Below, in pieces: positions 16,937-49,000 of a DNA stretch of 56,082 bases. The DNA is from an uncultured Bacteroidota bacterium (lineage in GTDB: Bacteria > Bacteroidota > Bacteroidia > Flavobacteriales > Flavobacteriaceae), in the NCBI GenBank assembly GCA_902550325.1, contig CACCYT010000004.1:1-56082 (forward strand), given 5' to 3'. A program made the position numbers and the translations under genes. The notes below the pieces were generated by a model that worked only from the letters and a program-made list of their open reading frames with translations, was not told where the DNA came from and searched no databases. Each line of letters begins with the position of its first letter. The first letter of the stretch is position 1.

Positions 16937-17083
16937 TTGAATATTGTCAAAAACATATTGTGGGTTCTACTAATCATAATCTTTCTCTATTCTCTAACAA
17001 GTCAAGAGCATGTATACGCTTTAATCGTTTCCATAGTTTGTATGATTCTATACCAATTGGAAAAGAAGTCTAAAAAGGATTAA
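16937..17083 (+). CDS. Small two-helix membrane peptide (48 aa)
   Basis: A 48-codon frame begins with TTG directly after the nadD stop (TAATTG). It encodes a Lys-containing N-terminus (MNIVKN), a hydrophobic helix ILWVLLIIIFLYSL, a short polar loop TSQEHVY, a second helix ALIVSIVCMILYQL and the basic tail EKKSKKD. This is a classic small hairpin membrane protein with positive-inside ends. I do not recognise the family. The coupling position makes translation plausible; chance is the alternative because no conservation can be tested here. Confidence 0.55.
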   Translation: MNIVKNILWVLLIIIFLYSLTSQEHVYALIVSIVCMILYQLEKKSKKD

Positions 17084-17183
17084 TAACAACTTCTATTTAA
17101 TTTCCTTGTTATAAATCTTTAACCATTATTTAACACTTTACCTTAACATTTTTTAATAAAATTGCTTACCCGAAATATATCTT
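17084..17183 (+). promoter_or_regulatory. Promoter region of the moxR-bat operon
   Basis: This 100-bp gap precedes moxR. It contains TTAAC at 17119, 17130 and 17143, the first two exactly 11 bp apart. No exact TAnnTTTG element is visible. Promoter location is inferred from position only. Confidence 0.35.
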
Positions 17184-18182
17184 ATGGAAAATAATAATAT
17201 TGACATTAATAAAATTAATGCTCAAATAAAAAAAGACAGCGAATTTATTGATCTGCTACTTATTGAAATTAATAAAGTAATTGTTGGTCAAAAATACATG
17301 CTTGAAAGGCTATTAATTGGATTGCTTGGAAAAGGTCACATTCTTCTCGAGGGTGTACCTGGCCTTGCAAAAACACTTGCCATTAATACACTTAGTCAAG
17401 CTGTTAAAGGAACATTTAGCAGAATTCAATTTACACCTGACTTGTTGCCAGCCGATGTTGTTGGCACAATGATATACAATATTAAGCAGAACGATTTCTC
17501 GATCAAGAAAGGACCAATCTTTGCAAATTTTGTATTGGCAGATGAAATAAACCGAGCTCCTGCAAAAGTCCAATCAGCTTTACTTGAATCAATGCAAGAA
17601 AAGCAAGTAACAATTGGTGACAATACATTTAAACTACAATTACCTTTCTTAGTAATGGCAACTCAGAACCCCATTGAGCAAGAGGGAACTTATCCGCTTC
17701 CTGAAGCTCAAATGGACAGGTTTATGTTAAAGTGTGTGATATCTTATCCTGAGTTTGAGGATGAGCAATTGATTGTCAGATCAAATATTAACGAATCATT
17801 TAGTAAAGTAAAACCTGTTGTTTCAATCAAAGACATTCTAAAGGCACAAGAATCCGTAAAGCAAGTTTATATGGATGAAAAAATTGAAAAATATATCCTA
17901 AAGTTAATTTTTGCAACTCGTTACCCGGAACAAAATAAGTTAGAAGACTTAAAACCCCTAATTGGTTTTGGCTCATCACCAAGAGGAAGTATTAATTTGG
18001 CTCAAGCAGCGAAATGTCATGCTTTTATTCAAAGAAGAGGTTATGTAATACCAGAGGATATCAAAGCTGTTATTCATGATGTGTTAAGACATAGAATAGG
18101 ATTGACTTATGAAGCTGAGGCAGAAAATATAAGTTCTACAGATATCATAGAGAAAATTGTTAATTCAATTGAGGTTCCCTAG
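17184..18182 (+). CDS. MoxR family AAA+ ATPase of the Bat operon
   Basis: A 332-residue MoxR AAA+ ATPase, a chaperone-like protein that works with von Willebrand A (vWA) proteins. Walker A is GVPGLAKT (residues 57-64), Walker B/sensor region FVLADEINRAPAKVQSALLE, and the family signature ATQNPIEQEGTYPLPEAQMDRF follows; the C-terminal lid domain contains IQRRGYVIPEDIKAVIHDVLRHR. It is the first gene of an eight-gene run (moxR, DUF58, a BatD-like gene, batA, batB, batC-like, batD, batE-like) with 7-bp or negative spacing. Bat operons have been linked to oxygen and stress tolerance in Bacteroides and Leptospira; the mechanism remains unsettled. Confidence 0.94.
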   Translation: MENNNIDINKINAQIKKDSEFIDLLLIEINKVIVGQKYMLERLLIGLLGKGHILLEGVPGLAKTLAINTLSQAVKGTFSRIQFTPDLLPADVVGTMIYNIKQNDFSIKKGPIFANFVLADEINRAPAKVQSALLESMQEKQVTIGDNTFKLQLPFLVMATQNPIEQEGTYPLPEAQMDRFMLKCVISYPEFEDEQLIVRSNINESFSKVKPVVSIKDILKAQESVKQVYMDEKIEKYILKLIFATRYPEQNKLEDLKPLIGFGSSPRGSINLAQAAKCHAFIQRRGYVIPEDIKAVIHDVLRHRIGLTYEAEAENISSTDIIEKIVNSIEVP

Positions 18183-38054: not shown

Positions 38055-40331
38055 CTATTCCTTTATTTTTTTGTCGTATTTGTCTGAGTACAATTCCAAA
38101 ATTTTTAAGTATTCACTTACTATGCTTTTGGTCTTATTTAAAAATTCAAAATATAATCGCGTATTTCTTGGACCAGAATCTTTGTCTTTGGTTCGTGATA
38201 CTTGAGATTTAATTTTATTTTCCAGTGATCTTATAACAGATTCTTTTACTGAGAAAATAGTTTTAATTTCCTCATAATTTTGATTTTCAAATATTTGAAT
38301 TATTTGTCTAAAAAAATCATTCATATCATCTTCTAATTCTTTTATTTCCCTCAACTGATTGAAGGTAAGTCCTCTGTGATTATTGTTAAAGTGTTTATAA
38401 ATGGCTTTAGAAATAGTTTGCATAGATAAGGTGATATTTTCTAGACCACCTAGAATTTTCATATGAAAATCAGATGCTGATTCTTTAGACGCTTCATCTA
38501 AATTTTTAATAAAATAGAATACATTGTTTGCAATCAGGTCAACATCTTTGTCTAGTTTTGATACTGTTGACTGATTGTCTTTTAGTGTTGAAATATCTTT
38601 TGAAGCTAGACCCTCAAATGTTTTGTAAAATATTTTATTTACCCTTTTTGAAAATTTTGTGATATTTTTTGAGCTTTCAAAGATTACTCCTTTGATAGAT
38701 TTACTTTCAATCATTTCAAGCTCTTCTTCCTCTACTTCCTTTATTCTTCTTTCTTTATGTAAAAAATAATTCTTAGTTAAGACATAACCCACTAAAATTA
38801 CCAATACGATTAAGCCAATTTCTTCAAAGTAGTAGAGTATGGATACGATTATTCCAGAAGCAGTGAAGGCGATTAGAGCTGTCATTAACCATCCACCGAT
38901 TACATTTATAACACCTGCAACCCTGTAAACAGCACTCTCACTTCCCCATGCTTTATCTGCGAGGGAAGTTCCCATTGCCACCATGAATGTTACATATGTT
39001 GTGGATAGTGGAAGTTTATAAGAGGTAGCAACAGAAATTAAAATTGCAGCGACTACTAAATTCACTGAAGCTCTTATCTTATCAAAAGCTGGTCTGTCTT
39101 TTCTAAGTATTAGTGTATTGACTTTAGGTTTTATGTATTGACTATCTACAAAATCAATTATTGGTTTGGGTGTAATTTTTGAAAAATTTTCCACAAATGA
39201 TGATCCAGCTCTAACAAAAAACCTTGAAAGAAAATTTGGTTCAAATCTTTCAATTGTTTCTTCTTGTCTTGAAAGATCAATAGATGTTTTAATTACAGAT
39301 TTTGCTTTTGATGACGTCCATAAAGTAAGTACCATGATTACTCCTGCACCTAATAATATAAATGTTGGAGCAGAAACTTTTTCGCTCAAAATTTCCATTG
39401 TAAAACTCTCAGCTGAGACTCCACTTGAAGACCACGCCAAGAAGGATTCATAACCAGCAATCGGAACACCTATGAAATTTACCAAATCATTTCCTGCAAA
39501 TGCTAATGCAAGTGCAAAGGTTCCAACACAAATAATTAGTGTATAAATATTTAATTTAAAAACAGAGTTGAATAAATAGGACAGAATTGTTAAAATTAGC
39601 AGCGATAATAAGACAATCATAGTCAGGTTAATATCAATGAAGTTGGAGATGGATAAGCCACCTAAGATATCATATTGATTCTCAGAATATGGTGTCCCTT
39701 TAAGACCTTTGATAACAATAAAATAAAATATGGATGTTAATGCTATTCCACCAAACAAAGAACCCATCCATTTTGCTTTTTCCTCAAATTTGAACGATAA
39801 AATAATTCTTGATATAAATTGAATTAGTGCACCTATTGAAAAAGCAACGATCACAGAGAAGAAAATCCCAAAAATAATTTGAGTTGCTTTTGATGTATTG
39901 ATATAATCACTAAGTTCTACAAGGCTCAAATCCAAAGCTGATAATTTAATTAATGAAATAACAACAGCAGCACCAAGTAATTCAAAAACTATTGAGACTG
40001 TTGTTGAGGTAGGAAGTCCATAAGAATTAAAAACATCCAATAATAATATGTCAGTAATCATTACTGCCATAAAAATTATCATGATCTCCGAAAAAACGAA
40101 CATTTCTGGATTAAAAATTCCTTTCCTTGCAACTTCCATCATCCCACTTGATGATATTGCTCCAAAAGCAACGCCTAATGATGCAATTACCATGAGAGTT
40201 TTGAATGATACAACTTTTGACCCAATTGCTGAGTTTAAAAAATTCACAGCATCATTACTGACACCAACCATTAAGTCGGCAATCGCGAGAAGACCTAATA
40301 TTACGACAAGAATTAAGTAAAAATCTGACAT
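38055..40331 (-). CDS. PiT-family inorganic phosphate transporter with C-terminal PhoU-like domain
   Basis: A 758-residue Na+- or H+-coupled phosphate permease. The two inverted PiT repeats carry the signatures GVSNDAVNFLNSAIG near the N-terminus with GLPTSTTVSIVFEL, and FAGNDLVNFIGVPIAG with KLPLSTTYVTFMVAMG in the second half. About ten membrane helices are visible. After the last helices a charged segment (KERRIKEVEEEELEMIESKS) leads to about 190 residues of PhoU/DUF47-like helices. Start: ATG at 40331 (a TTG directly precedes it). It sits 23 bp after a TonB receptor gene and 18 bp before arsC. The fused PhoU-like part suggests feedback control of uptake. Confidence 0.92.
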   Translation of the reverse strand: MSDFYLILVVILGLLAIADLMVGVSNDAVNFLNSAIGSKVVSFKTLMVIASLGVAFGAISSSGMMEVARKGIFNPEMFVFSEIMIIFMAVMITDILLLDVFNSYGLPTSTTVSIVFELLGAAVVISLIKLSALDLSLVELSDYINTSKATQIIFGIFFSVIVAFSIGALIQFISRIILSFKFEEKAKWMGSLFGGIALTSIFYFIVIKGLKGTPYSENQYDILGGLSISNFIDINLTMIVLLSLLILTILSYLFNSVFKLNIYTLIICVGTFALALAFAGNDLVNFIGVPIAGYESFLAWSSSGVSAESFTMEILSEKVSAPTFILLGAGVIMVLTLWTSSKAKSVIKTSIDLSRQEETIERFEPNFLSRFFVRAGSSFVENFSKITPKPIIDFVDSQYIKPKVNTLILRKDRPAFDKIRASVNLVVAAILISVATSYKLPLSTTYVTFMVAMGTSLADKAWGSESAVYRVAGVINVIGGWLMTALIAFTASGIIVSILYYFEEIGLIVLVILVGYVLTKNYFLHKERRIKEVEEEELEMIESKSIKGVIFESSKNITKFSKRVNKIFYKTFEGLASKDISTLKDNQSTVSKLDKDVDLIANNVFYFIKNLDEASKESASDFHMKILGGLENITLSMQTISKAIYKHFNNNHRGLTFNQLREIKELEDDMNDFFRQIIQIFENQNYEEIKTIFSVKESVIRSLENKIKSQVSRTKDKDSGPRNTRLYFEFLNKTKSIVSEYLKILELYSDKYDKKIKE

Positions 40332-40354
40332 CAAAAGAACTAAGTTAAAAATAA

Positions 40355-43147
40355 TTACAGGTTAATAGAGTAGCCCAAAGAAAATTTTACCCCTGGGTCT
40401 CTAAATGTATAAATTTGATCAATTGATCTGAATGACTCTGCAAAACTCTCTCTTTTGCTGCCCAGTATATTTTCAACTTTTAAATTAATTGATTTTTTAC
40501 TCTCTTGACCAAAGCTTTTTGAAAAAGTGAAGTTCAAACTTTCAAATGGATGAGTATATATATCAGGATTATAACCAGCACCAACGACTTCTAGAGTTTT
40601 ACCTTGCATGTTAAAGTACAGGCCGGCTCTTGTTCCATTTTGATTGTTGAAATCTAAACTAGCGTTAATCAAATATGGTGATTGACCCTGAAGTTGTCTT
40701 GAACCTGTAAGCGTTTCACCATCTCTGAGTGCAAGTGTTCTTAAGTTCGTTTCAACTTGCCCATAAGTTTGTTTGGATTCAATCAATGAAGCATTAATAT
40801 TCGCATTAAAAAAATTGTTCAAATTTTTTCTAAATTCAATTTCAAGCCCATAGACTTTCGCTTCACCTAGATTTCTTGGTTGAAATGTTTCTCGAGCCTG
40901 CTCATAATAACTAAGTTCAATAGGGTCTTTAAATACTTTATAAAAAGCACTTATTGCAAACAATTCATTTCCTTCTCCAAAATTTTCAAATCTTAAATCT
41001 ATATTATCAATATAAGTTGGTTTTAAATTTAAATTTCCAATGAAAGTTATGTTTGAAAGTGGATCAAAAATTTCTGCAATAGAAGCTTCTTTAAAAGAGG
41101 GTCTAGCAGTTGTTTTTGAATAGGATAATCTATAATTGCTGTTCTCTGTGACAGCAAAAATGAAATTTGCAGAAGGAAAAACATCAAACTTATCAATTAC
41201 TTTTTCATCAACTAAGTTTTGAAACCCAGAGCTATCCTGACCTGTGTAAATTGTAAAATAATTTTCAGCTCTGAGCCCTATGATTGATCTAAAACTTGGA
41301 CTTATTTTAAATTCAAGTGAACTGTACCCTGCATAATTATTTTGACTTGCATCAAAAGATTTACCTTGTTGGATAAGGTTATATGTCAAATCAATATGAT
41401 TTCCATTTGTGTTAGTAAGTGACCAAATATTTTCCGGAAAAAGTAATTCATCAGCATTGCCTGTGACCCCAGAATTAACCGTAATCTGTGTACTGTATAT
41501 GTCATAATCTCTTTGCTTATAAGAACCAAATAAACCAAACTTAAAAAGAGCGTCGTTACCAAATAATGACATTTTATTGGTAATATCTATTTTAGAAACA
41601 ACATTAATTTCATTTAAATCACGCCAGATTCTTGTTGGTCGCGTGTTCGTTGGAACTCTATATCCTCCATCATCAGTTAATTGAAAAGATGTGGTTCTTG
41701 CATCCTTGTCTTGTATCGATGATCTTGTTGGTGATAACTTCCATTCAATTTTCCAACCTCCATTATCTAAGCTGTGAGTTCCAGAAAATAAAAGATTTGA
41801 AATTGCCCTTTCAGTATACTCTAAATTATCTTTCTTCAAATTAATAAAATCAGTATCAAATCTTGATTGAAAAAAACTACCTGCCGAAGATTCTCCGTTT
41901 TGAATGTGCAGTAGATTTAACTTTAATTTTGAATTATTAGTCTTATAAGAAACACCACCCATTCCGCTTAAAATAATATTATTAATGCCTAGATCACCGT
42001 TCTGAGTATTTGAAGGATCCAGTTCAAAAATACTTGAGTTAGGGGGCTTGAAATAATTATTGTTTTGAACATTTTCGTAATATTCCGTTTCGTTCTTGTA
42101 TGAAACAGAACCAAAATAACCTATTTTATTTTCACCATCTTTTCCAACATTTTTTTGATTACCACCAGAAATTGAAAAACTATAATCACCCAAACTCGAT
42201 TGACGTAAAGCAGATAGATTGGAAGAGTATTTGTTGGTAATCTCAGTTTGAATCGGCTGATTAAAAACTTCTAAAAAAGTATAGTTCTTTTTTGGATGAA
42301 CCGGAAGAGACCTAGTGCCATCATCAAATCCAAGGAAATCTGTACTTCCACCAGAATATCCAAGGTAATCATTTTTATAATGCATGTCAGGATTGTAAGC
42401 TGTTCCAATGGAAATTGACAATTGTTTACTTGTAGGAAATTCTTTTGTTACTACGTCAACAATACCCCCAGTAAAATCGGCTGGCATTTCAGCAGTAGAA
42501 GATTTTATAACGATAACGTTATCTAAAATATTTGTGGGAAATAAATCCATTTGTACTGTATTTCTATCTGGATCAAGCCCTGGAATATCAATTCCATTTA
42601 AAATAGATTTGGTATAACGATCTCCCAAACCTCTAACGTAAACATACTTTCCGCCTTGTACTGAAACTCCAGGAACAGATTTAACTGCAGATGCGATATC
42701 GGATGCACCTGTACTTTTTATTCTCTGAGAGGAAAGACCATCAACGAGACTAGCAGATTTTTTTTGAAATGATAAAACGGCGGATTCGGTATTTTTTCTA
42801 GCACTGACAGTAACAACAACCTCATCCAACCCTTCCGCTAAAACTTCCATAATGACATTCACCTCTTTTGGGCTTAAACTATTAATTTCTACTTCACTAA
42901 TTTCAATGGTTTTATAACCCAGGTAACTAAATTGAAGAGTGTATATTCCTTCATCTAAAAAAATCTCAAAATTCCCATCAAAATCTGATGTTGTTCCCGT
43001 CCCGGTTTCTTTAACAAGAATATTGGCAAAAGGAACAGGGTCTTGGAAATCAGCATCTGTTATTGTTCCTCTAACAATCCCGCCTTGTGAATAGGATAAA
43101 TAAGAAATAAGAAATGCAATTAATGCATGAATTGTGTATCGCTTCAT
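40355..43147 (-). CDS. TonB-dependent outer-membrane receptor of the phosphorus locus
   Basis: A 930-residue receptor: signal peptide (to about residue 21), carboxypeptidase-regulatory-like domain (GGIVRGTITDADFQDPVPFA to about residue 110), plug (about 125-235; GASDIASAVKSVPGVSVQGG, YVYVRGLGDRYTKSILNG, STAEMPADFTGGIVDVVT) and beta barrel ending in FRDPGVKFSLGYSINL. It has no SusD partner; its partner appears to be the divergent-side lipoprotein encoded upstream on the same strand. Being followed within 23 bp by pit and arsC, it is a candidate receptor for phosphate or a phosphorus compound. Ligand identity is inference from context. Confidence 0.9.
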   Translation of the reverse strand: MKRYTIHALIAFLISYLSYSQGGIVRGTITDADFQDPVPFANILVKETGTGTTSDFDGNFEIFLDEGIYTLQFSYLGYKTIEISEVEINSLSPKEVNVIMEVLAEGLDEVVVTVSARKNTESAVLSFQKKSASLVDGLSSQRIKSTGASDIASAVKSVPGVSVQGGKYVYVRGLGDRYTKSILNGIDIPGLDPDRNTVQMDLFPTNILDNVIVIKSSTAEMPADFTGGIVDVVTKEFPTSKQLSISIGTAYNPDMHYKNDYLGYSGGSTDFLGFDDGTRSLPVHPKKNYTFLEVFNQPIQTEITNKYSSNLSALRQSSLGDYSFSISGGNQKNVGKDGENKIGYFGSVSYKNETEYYENVQNNNYFKPPNSSIFELDPSNTQNGDLGINNIILSGMGGVSYKTNNSKLKLNLLHIQNGESSAGSFFQSRFDTDFINLKKDNLEYTERAISNLLFSGTHSLDNGGWKIEWKLSPTRSSIQDKDARTTSFQLTDDGGYRVPTNTRPTRIWRDLNEINVVSKIDITNKMSLFGNDALFKFGLFGSYKQRDYDIYSTQITVNSGVTGNADELLFPENIWSLTNTNGNHIDLTYNLIQQGKSFDASQNNYAGYSSLEFKISPSFRSIIGLRAENYFTIYTGQDSSGFQNLVDEKVIDKFDVFPSANFIFAVTENSNYRLSYSKTTARPSFKEASIAEIFDPLSNITFIGNLNLKPTYIDNIDLRFENFGEGNELFAISAFYKVFKDPIELSYYEQARETFQPRNLGEAKVYGLEIEFRKNLNNFFNANINASLIESKQTYGQVETNLRTLALRDGETLTGSRQLQGQSPYLINASLDFNNQNGTRAGLYFNMQGKTLEVVGAGYNPDIYTHPFESLNFTFSKSFGQESKKSINLKVENILGSKRESFAESFRSIDQIYTFRDPGVKFSLGYSINL

Positions 43148-43183: not shown

Positions 43184-43210
43184 ATGAATGTCATGTTAAG
43201 AAATGGTTAA
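43184..43210 (-). promoter_or_regulatory. Short 11-bp direct-repeat array before the TonB receptor gene
   Basis: On the minus strand TTAAC occurs at 43210-43206 and again at 43199-43195, exactly 11 bp apart, with a degenerate third unit (TTCAT) 11 bp further on. The orientation is the same relative to its gene as in the stronger arrays at 44.6-44.8 kb. Confidence 0.45.
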
Positions 43211-43278: not shown

Positions 43279-44556
43279 TTATAATCCAGTTGCACCTCTG
43301 GCTGCTGCCAAGGTCCATGAGAATACTGAAGCATCAGCACCAACTGTTTGTGAACCTGCTGCCACGGAACTAGCAAAGCTTGATCCACCAGGATTTTTTC
43401 CATCATTAAAATCTGCGTTCGGTGTAGGTGTACCAGTTGAGGATCCACCTTCTCTTGTCGTGTCATTAAAGATTTGACCGCCAGTTAATGAATCACCTGA
43501 GGGAACAACTACTTGGATGTTTGAAAAGCTTAGCTCGCCAGACAAAAAGTGTGCCTGAACATCTCTTCTGTAATCTAGTTCAAAATCATTTCCAGCAGGG
43601 AAATTAAATGCATATATGTTGTTGTTTGCGCCCATTGCATATGACCTGAAATCGGCGTAATCTCCAACAACACCATCAGCTCCAACCAAAGTAATGTTGT
43701 TGAGCGTATAAGTATCTTCCATTGTACCTTCTGGTCCATCAATTTCTAAAGCATGGTCACTATTTGCACCAAGAATTACCATCGAATTTGAAACTGTACC
43801 GGAATATGATTGATCAATGTCTAGACCATCATCTCCCTGCGCCCAAACTAATAAATTTGAAGCATTTACTGTTCCTCCGAAAAATTCGATACCATCATCA
43901 ACATTAGCCACAACCTCAATGTTGCTAACTGTAGTTCCTGTTCCAACACCACCAAATGTTACACCATTGATTTCATTTCCTTCACCAATTGATGTCCCAC
44001 CATGTCTCACGGAAATATAGTTGTAAGTACCAGAGTTGTCTGAAGCATCAGATCCACCATAAAGGCCATTTGTATCTGAAGCAGGTATACCTTCGATTTG
44101 AGCAGTAGCTCCTCCACTAACAGAAATAGGGGCATTACCAAGTACAATTAAACCTCCCCAAAGACCTTGTTGAAGTGTCAAATTAGATCCAACGAGTTGT
44201 CCAGGTTGAATATCATCAGCAACCGATGTCATTATAATAGGTGCAGAAGCAGTACCATTGGCTATTAACTTACCTCCTTGTGCAACGCAAAGAAAAGAAG
44301 CATTTGTTCCTGTCCCACCCTCAGCTTTAAGGATTGTTCCAGCTGGAATTGTCATTGTGGCTCCACTAGACACATAAACTCTTCCACGAATTGTCCATAT
44401 GTGATTTGCGTCTAAGCTAATATCACTTGTGTACACTCCACTAAGAACGTATTGATCTGGATCAGCTCCATCTCCAGTGGAGTCGTCATCGTCACTACAA
44501 GCCACAAATAAAAACATTGAAGCGAGTAATAATAAATTTAATTTGAAAATTTTCAT
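43279..44556 (-). CDS. Surface-exposed lipoprotein, beta-helix-like, partner of TonB receptor
   Basis: A 425-residue lipoprotein. Its signal peptide ends at the lipobox FVAC (Cys20), followed by SDDDD, a lipoprotein export signal that directs Bacteroidota lipoproteins to the cell surface. The mature part is rich in Gly, Ser, Asn and Asp with repeating short hydrophobic strands (TIPAGTILKAEGG; GKLIANGTASAPIIMTS; LWGGLIVLGNAPIS; GTYNYISVRHGG; TVSNIEVVANVDDGIEFFGG), the look of a right-handed parallel beta-helix. No catalytic motif is evident. GC content is clearly higher than in neighbours. Its promoter region holds a five-copy 11-bp repeat array. I infer binding or processing of a P-containing substrate with the adjacent TonB receptor. 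Confidence 0.85.
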   Translation of the reverse strand: MKIFKLNLLLLASMFLFVACSDDDDSTGDGADPDQYVLSGVYTSDISLDANHIWTIRGRVYVSSGATMTIPAGTILKAEGGTGTNASFLCVAQGGKLIANGTASAPIIMTSVADDIQPGQLVGSNLTLQQGLWGGLIVLGNAPISVSGGATAQIEGIPASDTNGLYGGSDASDNSGTYNYISVRHGGTSIGEGNEINGVTFGGVGTGTTVSNIEVVANVDDGIEFFGGTVNASNLLVWAQGDDGLDIDQSYSGTVSNSMVILGANSDHALEIDGPEGTMEDTYTLNNITLVGADGVVGDYADFRSYAMGANNNIYAFNFPAGNDFELDYRRDVQAHFLSGELSFSNIQVVVPSGDSLTGGQIFNDTTREGGSSTGTPTPNADFNDGKNPGGSSFASSVAAGSQTVGADASVFSWTLAAARGATGL

Positions 44557-44608: not shown

Positions 44609-44663
44609 ATCAACTTAATATTAACTTAGTTTTAACTAAGTGTTAAGCTAATGTTATCTAAAA
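44609..44663 (-). promoter_or_regulatory. Five-unit 11-bp direct-repeat array (Pho-box-like), lipoprotein side
   Basis: Read on the plus strand the units are ATCAACTTAAT, ATTAACTTAGT, TTTAACTAAGT, GTTAAGCTAAT and GTTATCTAAAA, abutting with no gap. On the minus strand each contains a GTTAA/GATAA-type core at the same place in the unit. An 11-bp period places each core on the same DNA face, as in PhoB/PhoP-family operators. It ends 53 bp before the lipoprotein ATG. Confidence 0.65.
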
Positions 44664-44728
44664 AAAGTTATTATTATTAAAAATAATAAATACAATAAAT
44701 AATTGATTTTGAGGTATTTATAGAGTTA

Positions 44729-44772
44729 TTGTTAATTTAAAGTTAATTTAATGTAAATTAATTGTAAACAAA
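44729..44772 (+). promoter_or_regulatory. Four-unit 11-bp direct-repeat array (Pho-box-like), phytase side
   Basis: The abutting units are TTGTTAATTTA, AAGTTAATTTA, ATGTAAATTAA and TTGTAAACAAA. The first 7 bp of each (xxGTTAA or xxGTAAA) followed by 4 bp matches the 7+4 layout of PhoB boxes. It ends 25 bp before the ATG at 44798, directly upstream of a -10-type element. Confidence 0.65.
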
Positions 44773-44797: not shown

Positions 44798-45178
44798 ATG
44801 AAAAAATATATATTATTAGCACTCAGTTTTTTTTCCTTTTCTATGTATTCACAAGTAGAACTAGAGTCGGAAAATATCAATTTAAATGAGTTACAAAGCA
44901 AATCTGCTCAAGTCACAGAAATAAAACTCTATCATGATAATGGTAATATTTATCAAATAGGATCCTTAAAAAATAACAAACTACACGGAAGATGGGAATC
45001 TTATGATGTTAATGGCAACTTATCAGTTGTGGGTGAATTTCTTCGAGGTAAAAAACAAGGTAAGTGGTTTTTTTGGACGACAGATAAATTTATTGAAGTT
45101 AATTTTAAAAATAATAAAATTCAGAATCACTTCGAGTGGGATAAGGCAGTAAATTCAATTGTTTTGAGAACGAATTAG
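44798..45178 (+). CDS. Exported MORN/YwqK-like repeat protein
   Basis: A 126-residue secreted protein: signal peptide MKKYILLALSFFSFSMYSQ, then two MORN/YwqK-type repeats (KLYHDNGNIYQIGSLKNNKL; GRWESYDVNGNLSVVGEFLR; GKKQGKWFFW) with Gly-x-W turns. Such repeats are common in Bacteroidota exported proteins; no enzymatic motif is visible. It is the first gene downstream of the four-unit repeat array and is followed 97 bp later by a TonB receptor. It is probably induced with the phosphorus locus; function unknown. Confidence 0.82.
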   Translation: MKKYILLALSFFSFSMYSQVELESENINLNELQSKSAQVTEIKLYHDNGNIYQIGSLKNNKLHGRWESYDVNGNLSVVGEFLRGKKQGKWFFWTTDKFIEVNFKNNKIQNHFEWDKAVNSIVLRTN

Positions 45179-45275: not shown

Positions 45276-47990
45276 ATGAAAAATTACTTTTTACTATTTC
45301 TAACTTTACTATTTACAAGTTATTCGTTTGCACAAGTATCTTCCCTGAAAGGTCGTGTGCTTGATTCAAATGGCTTTGCACTTCCTGGTGCAACAATTCA
45401 GGCTGCACCATCTGGAAAAGCTGTTGTAACAGACTTTAACGGATTCTACACCATTGTTGGGATCGAAGGGGATCAAACAATTAAGGTATCTTACATTGGC
45501 TTTGAAACAGTTGAAGAATCAGTTTCTGTTAGCTCAGGAACTACATCTACGTTGGATTTTACTCTTGAAACTGCTATCAGCGAATTGGCTGAGGTCGTCG
45601 TCTCTGGTTTTCAGAGTGGAATCATCAAAGGATTGAATAAACAAAAATCTGACCTTAATGTGACCAATGTTGTTTCTGCTGATCAAATTGGAAAATTTCC
45701 TGATGATAATGTTGGGGATGTAATTAAAAGAATTGCAGGAGTAAGTATGCAAGGAGACCAGGGTGAAGCTAGAAATATTGTAATGAGAGGTCTTGGCCCA
45801 AGTCAAAATTCTGTTACACTTAATGGAGATAGAATTCCTTCTGCAGAAGGTGATAATAGAAACGTACAGTTGGATCTAATACCTTCTGCCATGATTCAAT
45901 CAATTGAGGTAAATAAGACGCTTACTCCTGACATGGAAGCTGACGCAATAGGAGGTTCTGTGAATTTAATTACAAGATCCAACCCGAGTGGTTTTAGAGC
46001 TTCAGCAACACTCGCTGGTGGTGGGCAACCTGTTAGAGAGAATGGTTTTAACTCAAACTTTTCATTTGTTGTAGGAAATGAAGTTTCTGACAAATTTAGC
46101 TACACATTGGCAGGTACTGTCCAAACAAAAGATTATGGTTCAGACAATATTGAATTTGAATGGAATGATCCAGCTGATTGGGCAGAGGACGGTGCTATCG
46201 GAGAAATGGACATTAGAAGATATGATGTAAAAAGAACAAGAAGAAGTCTAAGTTTAAACTTAGATTATAACATTGATGACAACAACCAATTATTCTTAAA
46301 AACTATTTACAATCATAGAGATGATTGGGAAAATAGATTTAGACTAAGAGTTGGATCGATTGATATGGAGGACATGACGGCCAGAATTAGAAAACAAACC
46401 AAAGGTGGTATTTCGGATAGCAACAATAAAGGTACTCGACTTGAGGATCAAAGAACTCAAAAATATTCTATTGGTGGTGATCATCTTTTGGGTGATTTAA
46501 AACTAGATTGGAAAGTTAGTTATTCAGAGGCTAGCGAAGACAGACCTGACGAGAGGTATGTGAGATACGAGCAGCGTGATGTTCCCTTTTCATCTCTCAA
46601 TATTTCAAATCCTGAAAGACCATATTTTGCTTGGACTGGTGATGCATGGAACAATCCAAGTGATTACCGATATAGAAAAACAGAGCAGGCATTTAAAACT
46701 ACTGATGAGACAAACACTTCTTTTTCTATTAATTTGGAAAAACCATATAGTGACAATGATGTTTGGAAAATAGGGTTTAAATTCAAGGATAAGACCAAGA
46801 TGAGAGATGATATTTGGTATGAATACGATAATGATCTTTCCAATATGGATGGCGTAAGCTATTTTGACGCTTCTATTCCTGATTATTTAGCTGGAGATAT
46901 TTATCAAAGTGGATATTTTGTAACCGCAAACACTTTAGGATTGTTATCACTATCCGGTCCTGAAGATCCGAATTTTGATTCGTATGTTATGGACGAATTT
47001 GCTGGAGGAAACTATGATGCTGAAGAACAAATTGCAGCTTTTTATGCCATGATAGTTGATAAGCTGGGTGATGATGTAACTTTAATTGCGGGTGCAAGAT
47101 TTGAATCTACATCAATTAATTATACTGGACAAGTATTTGATGAAGAGGAAGATGAACTTCCCTCAGATATTGGCTCTGTTAGTGGAGGAAATGATTATTA
47201 TAATATTCTTCCTAATTTAACCCTGCAATGGGATGTTAATGATGAATTAAATTTCAATTTTGCCTTTACCCAATCAATTGCTAGACCATCTTATTATGAT
47301 CTAGTTCCTTACGAATATTCCAACTCTGACGATCAAGAATTGGCTTTAGGAAATCCTGATTTGAAATCATCATTATCAACAAATTTTGATTTTATGGGAG
47401 AATGGTATTTTGGTGGTTTAAGTTTACTATCATTTGGATATTTCAGCAAAGACATCAAGGATTGGATTTATCAGTATACAACAAACAACTATACTTATGC
47501 TGGTGTTGACGGATATGAATTATCACAGCTAAGAAATGGAGAAAAAGCAAGCGTAAGCGGATTTGAGCTTGGTTTTCAAACCAAATTCTTGAAAAACTTT
47601 ACTTTTATGGGCAACTACACATCTACTGATTCATCAACAAATAATGTTGAAGGAAGGGATGATGTTCCTCTGACTGGTCAAGTTGATGATATGTATAATT
47701 TGTCATTGGCATTTGAAAATAGTAAGTTTTTTGTCAGAGCATCTATGAACTATGCAAGTGAAGCACTTGATGAGTTGAGTGGTGATGCCTATGAGGATAG
47801 ATATTATGATGAGCAAACATTTGTAGATGTTAATGCGAATTATAAAGTTAATGACAAACTAAGTATATTTGCGGAAGGCAAAAACCTAACGAATCAACCA
47901 CTAAGGTACTACCAAGGTATACAGCAAAGAACTATGCAAATTGAGTATTACAATTTAAGTTGGACATTAGGTTTGAAATATGACTTTTAA
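45276..47990 (+). CDS. TonB-dependent receptor (Xanth-Caul-like) paired with phytase
   Basis: A 904-residue outer-membrane receptor: signal peptide (to YSFAQ), carboxypeptidase-like domain (SSLKGRVLDSNGFALPGATI), plug with FPDDNVGDVIKRIAGVSMQG, RNIVMRGLGPSQNSVTLNGD and TPDMEADAIGGSVNLITRS, then a beta barrel ending LSWTLGLKYDF. The plug motifs are those of the TonB-Xanth-Caul subgroup. Its stop overlaps the phytase ATG (TAATG), so the two are translationally coupled, making inositol phosphates or their hydrolysis products the most likely ligands. Ligand assignment is inferred from that coupling. Confidence 0.92.
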   Translation: MKNYFLLFLTLLFTSYSFAQVSSLKGRVLDSNGFALPGATIQAAPSGKAVVTDFNGFYTIVGIEGDQTIKVSYIGFETVEESVSVSSGTTSTLDFTLETAISELAEVVVSGFQSGIIKGLNKQKSDLNVTNVVSADQIGKFPDDNVGDVIKRIAGVSMQGDQGEARNIVMRGLGPSQNSVTLNGDRIPSAEGDNRNVQLDLIPSAMIQSIEVNKTLTPDMEADAIGGSVNLITRSNPSGFRASATLAGGGQPVRENGFNSNFSFVVGNEVSDKFSYTLAGTVQTKDYGSDNIEFEWNDPADWAEDGAIGEMDIRRYDVKRTRRSLSLNLDYNIDDNNQLFLKTIYNHRDDWENRFRLRVGSIDMEDMTARIRKQTKGGISDSNNKGTRLEDQRTQKYSIGGDHLLGDLKLDWKVSYSEASEDRPDERYVRYEQRDVPFSSLNISNPERPYFAWTGDAWNNPSDYRYRKTEQAFKTTDETNTSFSINLEKPYSDNDVWKIGFKFKDKTKMRDDIWYEYDNDLSNMDGVSYFDASIPDYLAGDIYQSGYFVTANTLGLLSLSGPEDPNFDSYVMDEFAGGNYDAEEQIAAFYAMIVDKLGDDVTLIAGARFESTSINYTGQVFDEEEDELPSDIGSVSGGNDYYNILPNLTLQWDVNDELNFNFAFTQSIARPSYYDLVPYEYSNSDDQELALGNPDLKSSLSTNFDFMGEWYFGGLSLLSFGYFSKDIKDWIYQYTTNNYTYAGVDGYELSQLRNGEKASVSGFELGFQTKFLKNFTFMGNYTSTDSSTNNVEGRDDVPLTGQVDDMYNLSLAFENSKFFVRASMNYASEALDELSGDAYEDRYYDEQTFVDVNANYKVNDKLSIFAEGKNLTNQPLRYYQGIQQRTMQIEYYNLSWTLGLKYDF

Positions 47991-49000
47991 TGCATAAAAA
48001 AATAATCTCTGTTGCTATTTTCTTTTTCAGCGCAGTAGTTTTTTCACAAGAGCCCAATAACTTGGGCTCTTTGTTTTATAAAGAAGTGACGGCTGATATC
48101 GAAACTGAACCTGTATTTGTTGCGGATGATGCTGCTGATGATATGTGTGTTCTTGAGAATAAAACTGACCCAGATAAATCACTCATTATTTCGTCCGATA
48201 AAAAATATGGAATTATCGTTTATAATTTGGATGGAAAAAAATTATATGACTATCCCGTTGGTAGAGTAAATAATGTAGATATTATTGAATCTAAAGGCAG
48301 GTTTTATGTTGCAGGAACAAATCGAACAAAGAACAATATTGAAATTTATGAATTTGGTATTGACGGGCAATTGCAAAGTACTTTAATTTCTGAAAATGTT
48401 CAATCCCTTAAAGATGTATACGGAATTACTTTCTACAACGGCAATCAAGAAAAATATTTATTTGTTAGTGATAAAAAAGGAAATGTTGAACAATGGAGGA
48501 TTGAATTAGACAGACCTGACCCAAAAATTTATTTAACAAGAAAATTAAGATTTTCATCACTAGCTGAAGGAATTGTTTCGGATGAAAAAAACAACGTTGT
48601 TTTTATAGGACAAGAAAAAAAAGGCATATGGAAAATAGATCCAATCAATCCTTATGTTGAAAAAGAGCTTATCTATAAAAAAAATAAATTCATGCGTCCA
48701 GATTTTGAGGGTTTAGCTCTTAGGGAGGATGAAAACAATAATGGATATATCGTTGCATCAGTTCAAGGCTCAAACGGATACTTATTGTTGGACAGATTGG
48801 ATTATACTCCAAAACTTTTCTTTAGAGTTGTTGATTCTGCTGAAATTGATGGCACAACCGAAACGGACGGAATTGAGGTTTCAAACATCAAGACAAAAAA
48901 ATTTCCTAATGGGTTTTTTATTGCTCAAGATGATGATAATGATGGATTGAATCAAAATTTTAAAATAGTAGATTGGAATAAAATAAAACTGAATGAATAA
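47990..49000 (+). CDS. Beta-propeller phytase (3-phytase family)
   Basis: A 336-residue exported phytase. The signal peptide ends at about VVFSQ (residue 20). Propeller signatures are DDAADDMCVLENKTDPDKSL, IISSDKKYGIIVYNLDGK, GRVNNVDI, RPDFEGLALRED, GYIVASVQGSNGYLLLDR and TDGIEVSNIKTKKFPNGFFI with AQDDDNDG. These supply the acidic residues that bind calcium and phosphate in BPP enzymes. It releases phosphate from myo-inositol hexakisphosphate in the periplasm or outside the cell. It is coupled to the upstream TonB receptor, and the next gene starts 8 bp before its stop. Confidence 0.95.
   Translation: MHKKIISVAIFFFSAVVFSQEPNNLGSLFYKEVTADIETEPVFVADDAADDMCVLENKTDPDKSLIISSDKKYGIIVYNLDGKKLYDYPVGRVNNVDIIESKGRFYVAGTNRTKNNIEIYEFGIDGQLQSTLISENVQSLKDVYGITFYNGNQEKYLFVSDKKGNVEQWRIELDRPDPKIYLTRKLRFSSLAEGIVSDEKNNVVFIGQEKKGIWKIDPINPYVEKELIYKKNKFMRPDFEGLALREDENNNGYIVASVQGSNGYLLLDRLDYTPKLFFRVVDSAEIDGTTETDGIEVSNIKTKKFPNGFFIAQDDDNDGLNQNFKIVDWNKIKLNE

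What the first reader, a model, noticed from the sequence alone, without database searches (positions are those of the whole stretch)
44609..44772. Two divergent 11-bp-period direct-repeat arrays in one intergenic region of the phosphorus locus
The 241-bp region between the surface lipoprotein and the MORN-like gene holds five abutting 11-mers (44609-44663) and, 65 bp away, four abutting 11-mers (44729-44772). Each array's TTAA core is in the same orientation relative to its own downstream gene, and each is followed by a -7-like box. PhoB/PhoP operators are direct repeats with an 11-bp period, and the flanking genes are phosphorus genes. Five- and four-unit arrays are longer than the usual two to three units. 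I infer a Bacteroidota-specific Pho box of the form (G)TTAA(C/T)-N6.
Basis: partly seen in the sequence, partly recalled or inferred. Interest (0 to 1): 0.72.

Follow-up and report, generated by a model that had tools for sequence, protein, structure and literature searches.

The report
Bacteroidia Pho-box arrays at phytase locus
Two runs of 11-base repeats between phosphorus-uptake genes of an uncultured bacterium look like landing strips for its PhoB-type phosphate regulator, and the same DNA signal sits in front of the gene for that regulator in many members of the class Bacteroidia.

Summary
The two 11-bp arrays are real and conserved. In 12 promoter regions of five related phosphorus loci, TTAAY pairs at spacing 11 number 23 (both strands); shuffles give 0.7 on average (maximum 5 of 1000) and 28 other intergenic regions give 2. 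The unit is TGTTAA-N5.

A matrix trained only on P-locus sites finds the same pair upstream of the PhoB-like regulator RR1: 27 of 40 Flavobacteriaceae promoters beat their own shuffles at p<=0.05, and 20 of 24 in other Bacteroidia families. It also marks moxR (24 of 30) and other phytase operons (20 of 48). Background is 22 of 111; other OmpR regulators give 0 of 9; PhoX, 4 of 25, is not enriched. In one relative phoB-phoR lies directly behind Pit at this region. The published Riemerella PhoP motif, TTTAACA, agrees (PMC9603813).

Best reading: multi-unit Pho boxes bound by RR1. The orientation claim fails, the -7 boxes are at chance, and similar boxes are known elsewhere. Binding and phosphate response were not testable. 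Pit ends in a PhoU-like fold.

The parts
44619..44657 (+). Array 1: four TGTTAA-type units at 11-bp steps (TATTAA, TTTTAA, TGTTAA, TGTTAT); a looser reading spans 44609-44663. Upstream of the lipoprotein gene on the - strand.
   Evidence: leave-window-out matrix score 17.2 on +
44730..44768 (+). Array 2: four units (TGTTAA, AGTTAA, TGTAAA, TGTAAA), upstream of the MORN gene
   Evidence: leave-window-out score 23.2; conserved in 7 of 7 loci as 3-4 units
43194..43210 (+). Two-unit box between the lipoprotein gene and the first TonB-receptor gene
   Evidence: orthologous pairs in L050, L051, L053, L056
45201..45217 (-). Two-unit box upstream of the second TonB receptor / phytase operon
   Evidence: orthologous pairs in L050-L057, L059, L074
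17119..17135 (-). Two-unit box upstream of moxR, outside the phosphorus locus; rank 4 of 18 window intergenic regions
38055..40334 (-). Pit phosphate transporter (PHO4); its last 219 residues are predicted to fold like PhoU
40355..43147 (-). TonB-dependent receptor 1
43279..44556 (-).
44798..45178 (+). Small MORN_2-like protein (below the Pfam cut-off)
45276..47990 (+). TonB-dependent receptor 2
47990..49000 (+). Phytase (PF02333)
17184..18182 (+). MoxR AAA ATPase; its promoter carries the same box in most of 30 Flavobacteriaceae tested

Best explanation
The arrays are multi-unit Pho-box-type operators. A PhoB/PhoP-like OmpR-family response regulator (RR1; G000 contig C25, not in the window), phosphorylated by its neighbouring PhoR-like kinase at low phosphate, binds head-to-tail to TGTTAA units one per 11 bp. 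In this way it activates the divergent operons for phosphate uptake (lipoprotein, TonB receptor, Pit) and phytate use (MORN protein, TonB receptor, phytase). Shown here: the repeats, their conservation at fixed 11-bp spacing, the same pair upstream of RR1 itself and of moxR, and the RR1-kinase genes lying inside the locus in a relative. Inferred: binding by RR1, head-to-tail occupancy, activation rather than repression, and low phosphate as the signal.
For: Spacing spectrum 23 at 11 bp and 11 at 22 bp, against shuffle mean 0.7 at 11 bp and 2 in control regions. With the window left out of training, its three P-locus regions rank 1-3 of 18 intergenic regions, 0 of 200 shuffles reaching any. A matrix trained only on P-locus sites marks RR1 promoters: 40 of 40 above their shuffle mean, 27 of 40 at p<=0.05, mean score 12.1 at spacing 11 and 6.7-7.6 at 7-10 and 12-15. 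Other Bacteroidia families: 24 of 24 above the mean, 20 of 24 at p<=0.05. moxR promoters: 30 of 30 and 24 of 30. Phytase-operon promoters outside training: 20 of 48. Controls: 22 of 111 neighbouring promoters, other OmpR regulators 0 of 9, downstream flanks no higher than shuffles. In L055 the order is phytase operon <- arrays -> Pit-phoB-phoR. Nine relatives have 1-3 OmpR-domain hits each; the two of this genome are RR1 and an RprY-like regulator. Published: F. johnsoniae TBDT-phytase and phoB are induced at low Pi (PMC8115612); Riemerella PhoP motif TTTAACA, binds its own and the moxR promoter (PMC9603813).
Against: No binding or expression data for this organism. RR1 scores below the curated cut-offs of both PhoB families (200.8 vs 270 and 199.7 vs 296.2 bits). 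PhoX promoters lie above their shuffles (Wilcoxon p=0.0015) but not above the background rate (4 of 25 vs 22 of 111). That background is itself four times the nominal 5%, so p values against shuffles are generous. 28 of 48 phytase promoters fail. Riemerella PhoP acts on the bat operon and oxidative stress, binds DNA without phosphorylation, and pstS rose 8-fold in the phoPR mutant (PMC9603813, PMC5399024), so the signal may not be phosphate alone. Whether RR1 is the orthologue of Riemerella PhoP or of Fjoh_0544 was not tested.
Confidence: 0.82

Rival explanations
1. The boxes are RR1 operators, but RR1 is a general envelope/redox regulator rather than a phosphate regulator; the phosphorus locus is one of many targets.
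For: The moxR box is very uniform (30 of 30 above shuffle). In Riemerella the regulator affects bat, TBDR and many other genes, and its motif is likened to ArcA (PMC9603813). RR1 is below the PhoB cut-offs.
Against: In this clade the model's best hits lie in the phosphorus locus in 7 of 7 genomes (five of the seven contributed training sites and the other two are close relatives of the window). phoB-phoR sits behind Pit in L055. F. johnsoniae phoB and TBDT-phytase respond to low Pi (PMC8115612).
Confidence: 0.25
2. Another DNA-binding protein (RprY-like regulator, or a dimer on the 8-bp inverted repeat ACTTAGTT-TT-AACTAAGT inside array 1) uses the repeats.
For: The inverted repeat is seen by eye in array 1. 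RprY-like is the other OmpR-type regulator of this genome.
Against: Promoters of other OmpR regulators lack the box (0 of 9), whereas RR1 promoters have it. In the alignment the inverted repeat is broken by one base in L050 and L051 and absent in L053, L055 and L056, whereas the 11-bp units of array 2 are kept.
Confidence: 0.08
3. Chance: AT-rich intergenic DNA gives TTAA at many spacings.
For: The 241-bp region alone is only modestly unusual when any lag is allowed (p=0.08 by base identity, 0.07 by TTAAY).
Against: Conserved spectrum with a peak at 11 and its multiple 22, and transfer to independent promoters.
Confidence: 0.02

Closest known systems
E. coli PhoB Pho box (PMC4415409, passages seen; the longer consensus with TGTCA-N6-TGTCA and the box at phoB itself are recalled)
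   Same: Head-to-tail units of 11 nt, upstream of phosphate-scavenging genes
   Different: Core CTGTCAT there, TGTTAA here; four units in one promoter here
Riemerella anatipestifer PhoP motif (PMC9603813, passages seen)
   Same: Most conserved bases TTTAACA, the reverse complement of TGTTAAA; PhoP binds upstream of phoPR and moxR, where the box is found here
   Different: The passages seen describe no 11-bp tandem arrangement and no phytase locus; the authors stress the bat operon and ArcA likeness
Cyanobacterial SphR Pho box (PMC1906773, passages seen)
   Same: At least three tandem 8-mers CTTAACCT; the predicted sites have 3-bp linkers, i.e. period 11 and a TTAAC core
   Different: Different phylum; targets in the passages are pst, phoA and sphX rather than TBDR-phytase
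ArcA box of E. coli (consensus recalled: GTTAATTAAATGTTA)
   Same: Nearly the same letters and spacing as array 2
   Different: RR1 is closer to the PhoB families than to ArcA (200 vs 106 bits)

Membership tests
Pho-box (PhoB/PhoP direct-repeat operator) | at least two direct repeats with an 11-bp period | tested here: met
Pho-box (PhoB/PhoP direct-repeat operator) | lies upstream of phosphate-acquisition genes, conserved in relatives | tested here: met
Pho-box (PhoB/PhoP direct-repeat operator) | also present in the promoter of the regulator (sequence sign of autoregulation) | tested here: met
   27 of 40 and 20 of 24 promoters at p<=0.05
Pho-box (PhoB/PhoP direct-repeat operator) | E. coli core CTGTCAT | tested here: not met
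   core is TGTTAA; the consensus varies from species to species (PMC4415409)
Pho-box (PhoB/PhoP direct-repeat operator) | bound by the phosphorylated regulator; expression rises at low phosphate | not testable with these tools
   needs footprint and expression data
Pho-box (PhoB/PhoP direct-repeat operator) | found at other classical Pho genes (PhoX) | tested here: inconclusive
   4 of 25, no more than background, though above shuffles; most of the 25 are partial PF05787 matches
PhoB (TIGR02154 / NF053854) for RR1 | score over the curated cut-off | tested here: not met
   199.7 of 296.2 and 200.8 of 270 bits, though these are its two best families
PhoB (TIGR02154 / NF053854) for RR1 | receiver plus winged-helix (Trans_reg_C) domains, next to a PhoR-like kinase | tested here: met
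   winged helix in RR1, kinase gene adjacent; both domains in its orthologues L238 and L055
PhoU (Pit C-terminal part) | Pfam PF01895 over its cut-off | tested here: not met
   18.1 of 23.5 bits, E=0.0034; the L055 protein gives no such hit
PhoU (Pit C-terminal part) | PhoU fold | tested here: met
   model pLDDT 78.5, 3 sequences; the first 11 Foldseek rows are PhoU or PhoU-like (rank 5 is filed as a hypothetical protein), best E 0.0017, prob 1.00, TM to 0.73 by query length; VIA Z 17.9, rmsd 3.7, 208 aligned. Caution: plant ALMT channels, unrelated helical bundles, reach Z 15.4

The most novel reading that the evidence does not exclude
A class-wide Bacteroidia Pho box (TGTTAA every 11 bp, mostly two units at phoB and moxR but three to four at the phosphorus locus) works with a rewired phosphate sensor. 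In this clade no PhoU gene was found; instead a PhoU-fold domain is fused to the Pit transporter, whose operon starts at the array region and whose gene in one relative is followed directly by phoB-phoR. Transport through the Pit-PhoU fusion would set the PhoR kinase, and array length would set the phosphate threshold of each promoter.
Probability: 0.3. Interest if true: 0.75.

Novelty: new variant of a known kind. Interest (0 to 1): 0.6.

Why it matters
Bacteroidetes mobilise organic phosphorus, and the low-phosphate genes of Flavobacterium (TonB receptors, phytase, lipoproteins) are known from omics (PMC8115612, passages). In my ten paper searches I met no description of an 11-bp tandem Pho box for this group; only listings and passages were seen, and most subscription journals are not in that library. 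A box that can be scanned for would make the regulon of uncultured Flavobacteriia predictable from sequence. It also connects the Riemerella PhoP motif, which its authors read as ArcA-like and redox-linked, with phosphorus genes.

Tried and rejected
Orientation relative to the gene as a rule: rejected. Among boxes scoring 9 or more, RR1 boxes are mostly sense in Flavobacteriaceae (25 of 31) and mostly antisense in other families (10 of 14), and moxR boxes are antisense in 26 of 26. -7 boxes as evidence: at chance level. Exact TTAAY triplets with up to one mismatch in the own genome: 14 hits against 13 for the reversed pattern; not specific alone, though 5 of the 14 fall in this one intergenic region. 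EM motif finding gave only a near-palindromic TTAA period, strand undecided. PhoX as a positive control failed. A first test of RR1 promoters, the regulator part and the PhoX part read loci with the gene on the minus strand from the wrong side; these are withdrawn and replaced.

Rows dropped: L323 (too near a contig edge), four Flavobacteriaceae loci and L216; five PhoX loci at an edge (L184, L185, L187, L193, L194); L062 and L063 (near copies of L061). L069 and L134 are the same contig from two collections (both fail), so the 48 hold 47 distinct loci. The loci tested are mostly the best-scoring ones handed out: 40 RR1 loci from two searches, 24 from 30 loci of 137 matching genomes and 30 of 80 moxR genomes, so they lean to closer relatives.

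Full report
OBSERVATION. The region between the lipoprotein gene (43279-44556, minus) and the MORN-like gene (44798-45178, plus) is 241 bp and holds the two arrays at the stated places. Neighbouring genes are a Pit transporter, two TonB receptors and a phytase. Taken alone the region is only modestly unusual: TTAAY pairs at 11 bp p=0.0015, but 0.07 if any spacing from 8 to 40 is allowed; plain TTAA pairs 0.0005 and 0.01.

CONSERVATION. A scan with the phytase fetched 79 loci. Ten records of the same clade (L050-L057, L059, L074; uncultured Bacteroidetes or Flavobacteriales) keep TTAAY-N6-TTAAY pairs in the same intergenic regions, as far as each record reaches, while the letters between differ. 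Exceptions: L056, L057 and L074 have no exact pair in the divergent region; L058 is cut before the region; L060 lacks the exact pair, though the matrix finds another site there (p=0.02). In 12 regions of five loci the distance spectrum peaks with 23 pairs at 11 bp and 11 at 22 bp; 1000 shuffles give a mean of 0.7 and a maximum of 5 at 11 bp, and 28 other intergenic regions give 2. The next highest distance in the P regions is 5 bp, with 10. The alignment shows a footprint of TGTTA and GTAAA steps every 11 bp in array 2. Array 1 is less conserved.

UNIT. From 17 sites the unit is TGTTAA followed by 5 bases. With the window's four sites left out, its three P-locus regions rank 1 to 3 of 18 intergenic regions, and the fourth (p=0.02) is the promoter of moxR.

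REGULATOR. The genome (58% complete) has two OmpR-type regulators: RR1, whose two best NCBIfam matches are the PhoB families though below their cut-offs, and an RprY-like one, also below its cut-off. Nine relatives have 1 to 3 hits each. RR1 occurs in 146 of 149 family genomes at E<=1e-65 and 137 of 148 class genomes at E<=1e-45. Without retraining, the P-locus matrix marks RR1 promoters: 40 of 40 above their shuffle mean and 27 of 40 at p<=0.05 in Flavobacteriaceae, with a score peak only at spacing 11 (12.1 against 6.7-7.6), and 24 of 24 and 20 of 24 in other Bacteroidia families (12.5 against 5.1-6.7). Nine promoters of other OmpR regulators (33-36% identical to RR1) give 0 of 9, and downstream flanks score no higher than their shuffles. 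A sequence model searched over seven clade genomes puts its best hit in the phosphorus locus in each; five of them gave training sites. In one genome a further hit (E=0.044) lies upstream of RR1, and in the own genome a weak one (E=2.6) does. In L055 the genes run phytase operon, arrays, Pit, RR1 (71% identical), kinase.

OTHER TARGETS. moxR promoters: 30 of 30 above their mean, 24 of 30 at p<=0.05, mostly TGTTAAtAATTGGTTAAAA near -105. PhoX: 4 of 25. Neighbouring promoters as background: 22 of 111, well above the nominal 5%, so the comparison with this background matters more than the shuffle p values. Against it (Fisher, one-sided): RR1 family p=9e-8, RR1 class 6e-9, moxR 2e-9, phytase 0.004, PhoX 0.76, other regulators 1.0. 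Loci in each set share ancestry and are not independent trials, so these p values are optimistic.

PAPERS (passages seen in each, not whole texts). PMC9603813: Riemerella PhoP DAP-seq motif with TTTAACA most conserved, likened to ArcA; PhoP binds its own and the moxR promoter; moxR falls in the phoP mutant. PMC5399024: pstS rises 8-fold in the phoPR mutant, which argues against a simple Pho activator. PMC8115612: F. johnsoniae TBDT-phytase and PhoB rise at low phosphate, and plant-associated Bacteroidetes lack PstSABC. PMC3547664: B. fragilis PhoB binds the pst promoter; no box sequence is given in the passages seen. PMC4415409 and PMC1906773: known Pho boxes.

SENSOR. No PhoU domain was found in 10 genomes of the clade and near relatives, while 13 of 14 control genomes ring. 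Completeness is known for five of the ten (58, 82, 87, 87 and 99%), so absence is not proven. The last 219 residues of the Pit protein fold like PhoU in the model, with a sub-threshold Pfam hit. A link between this domain and PhoR is inference.

VERDICT. The arrays are most likely Pho-type operators of RR1. The kind is known; the letters, the class-wide reach, the target set and the possible Pit-PhoU sensor make it a variant worth testing.

Noticed in passing
window 38055-40334 (-): The Pit transporter carries a C-terminal domain predicted to fold like PhoU, in a clade where no separate PhoU was found.
   Followed up: partly
window 16937-17183: The moxR promoter has the same 11-bp box, found near -105 in most of 30 Flavobacteriaceae tested.
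   Followed up: yes
L055:2587-3607 (-): The PhoR-like kinase is split into two overlapping ORFs (HisKA and HATPase parts), perhaps a frameshift or an assembly error.
   Followed up: no
L055:2587-6835: Here no lipoprotein or first TonB receptor lies between the divergent region and Pit; Pit faces the region directly and is followed by phoB-phoR and a DUF481 gene.
   Followed up: partly
L142, L143, L144, L147 (and L137, L139), upstream of the TBDR-phytase operon: The first four share a GTTAAtgttgct element; L137 and L139 share only aatgttgct. It does not look like the 11-bp box alone.
   Followed up: no
L061-L063 and L068, upstream of the TBDR-phytase operon: Tenacibaculum loci carry a TTAAC-N6-TTAAT pair upstream of the TonB receptor; by matrix only L068 reaches p<=0.05, and L061 does not.
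   Followed up: partly
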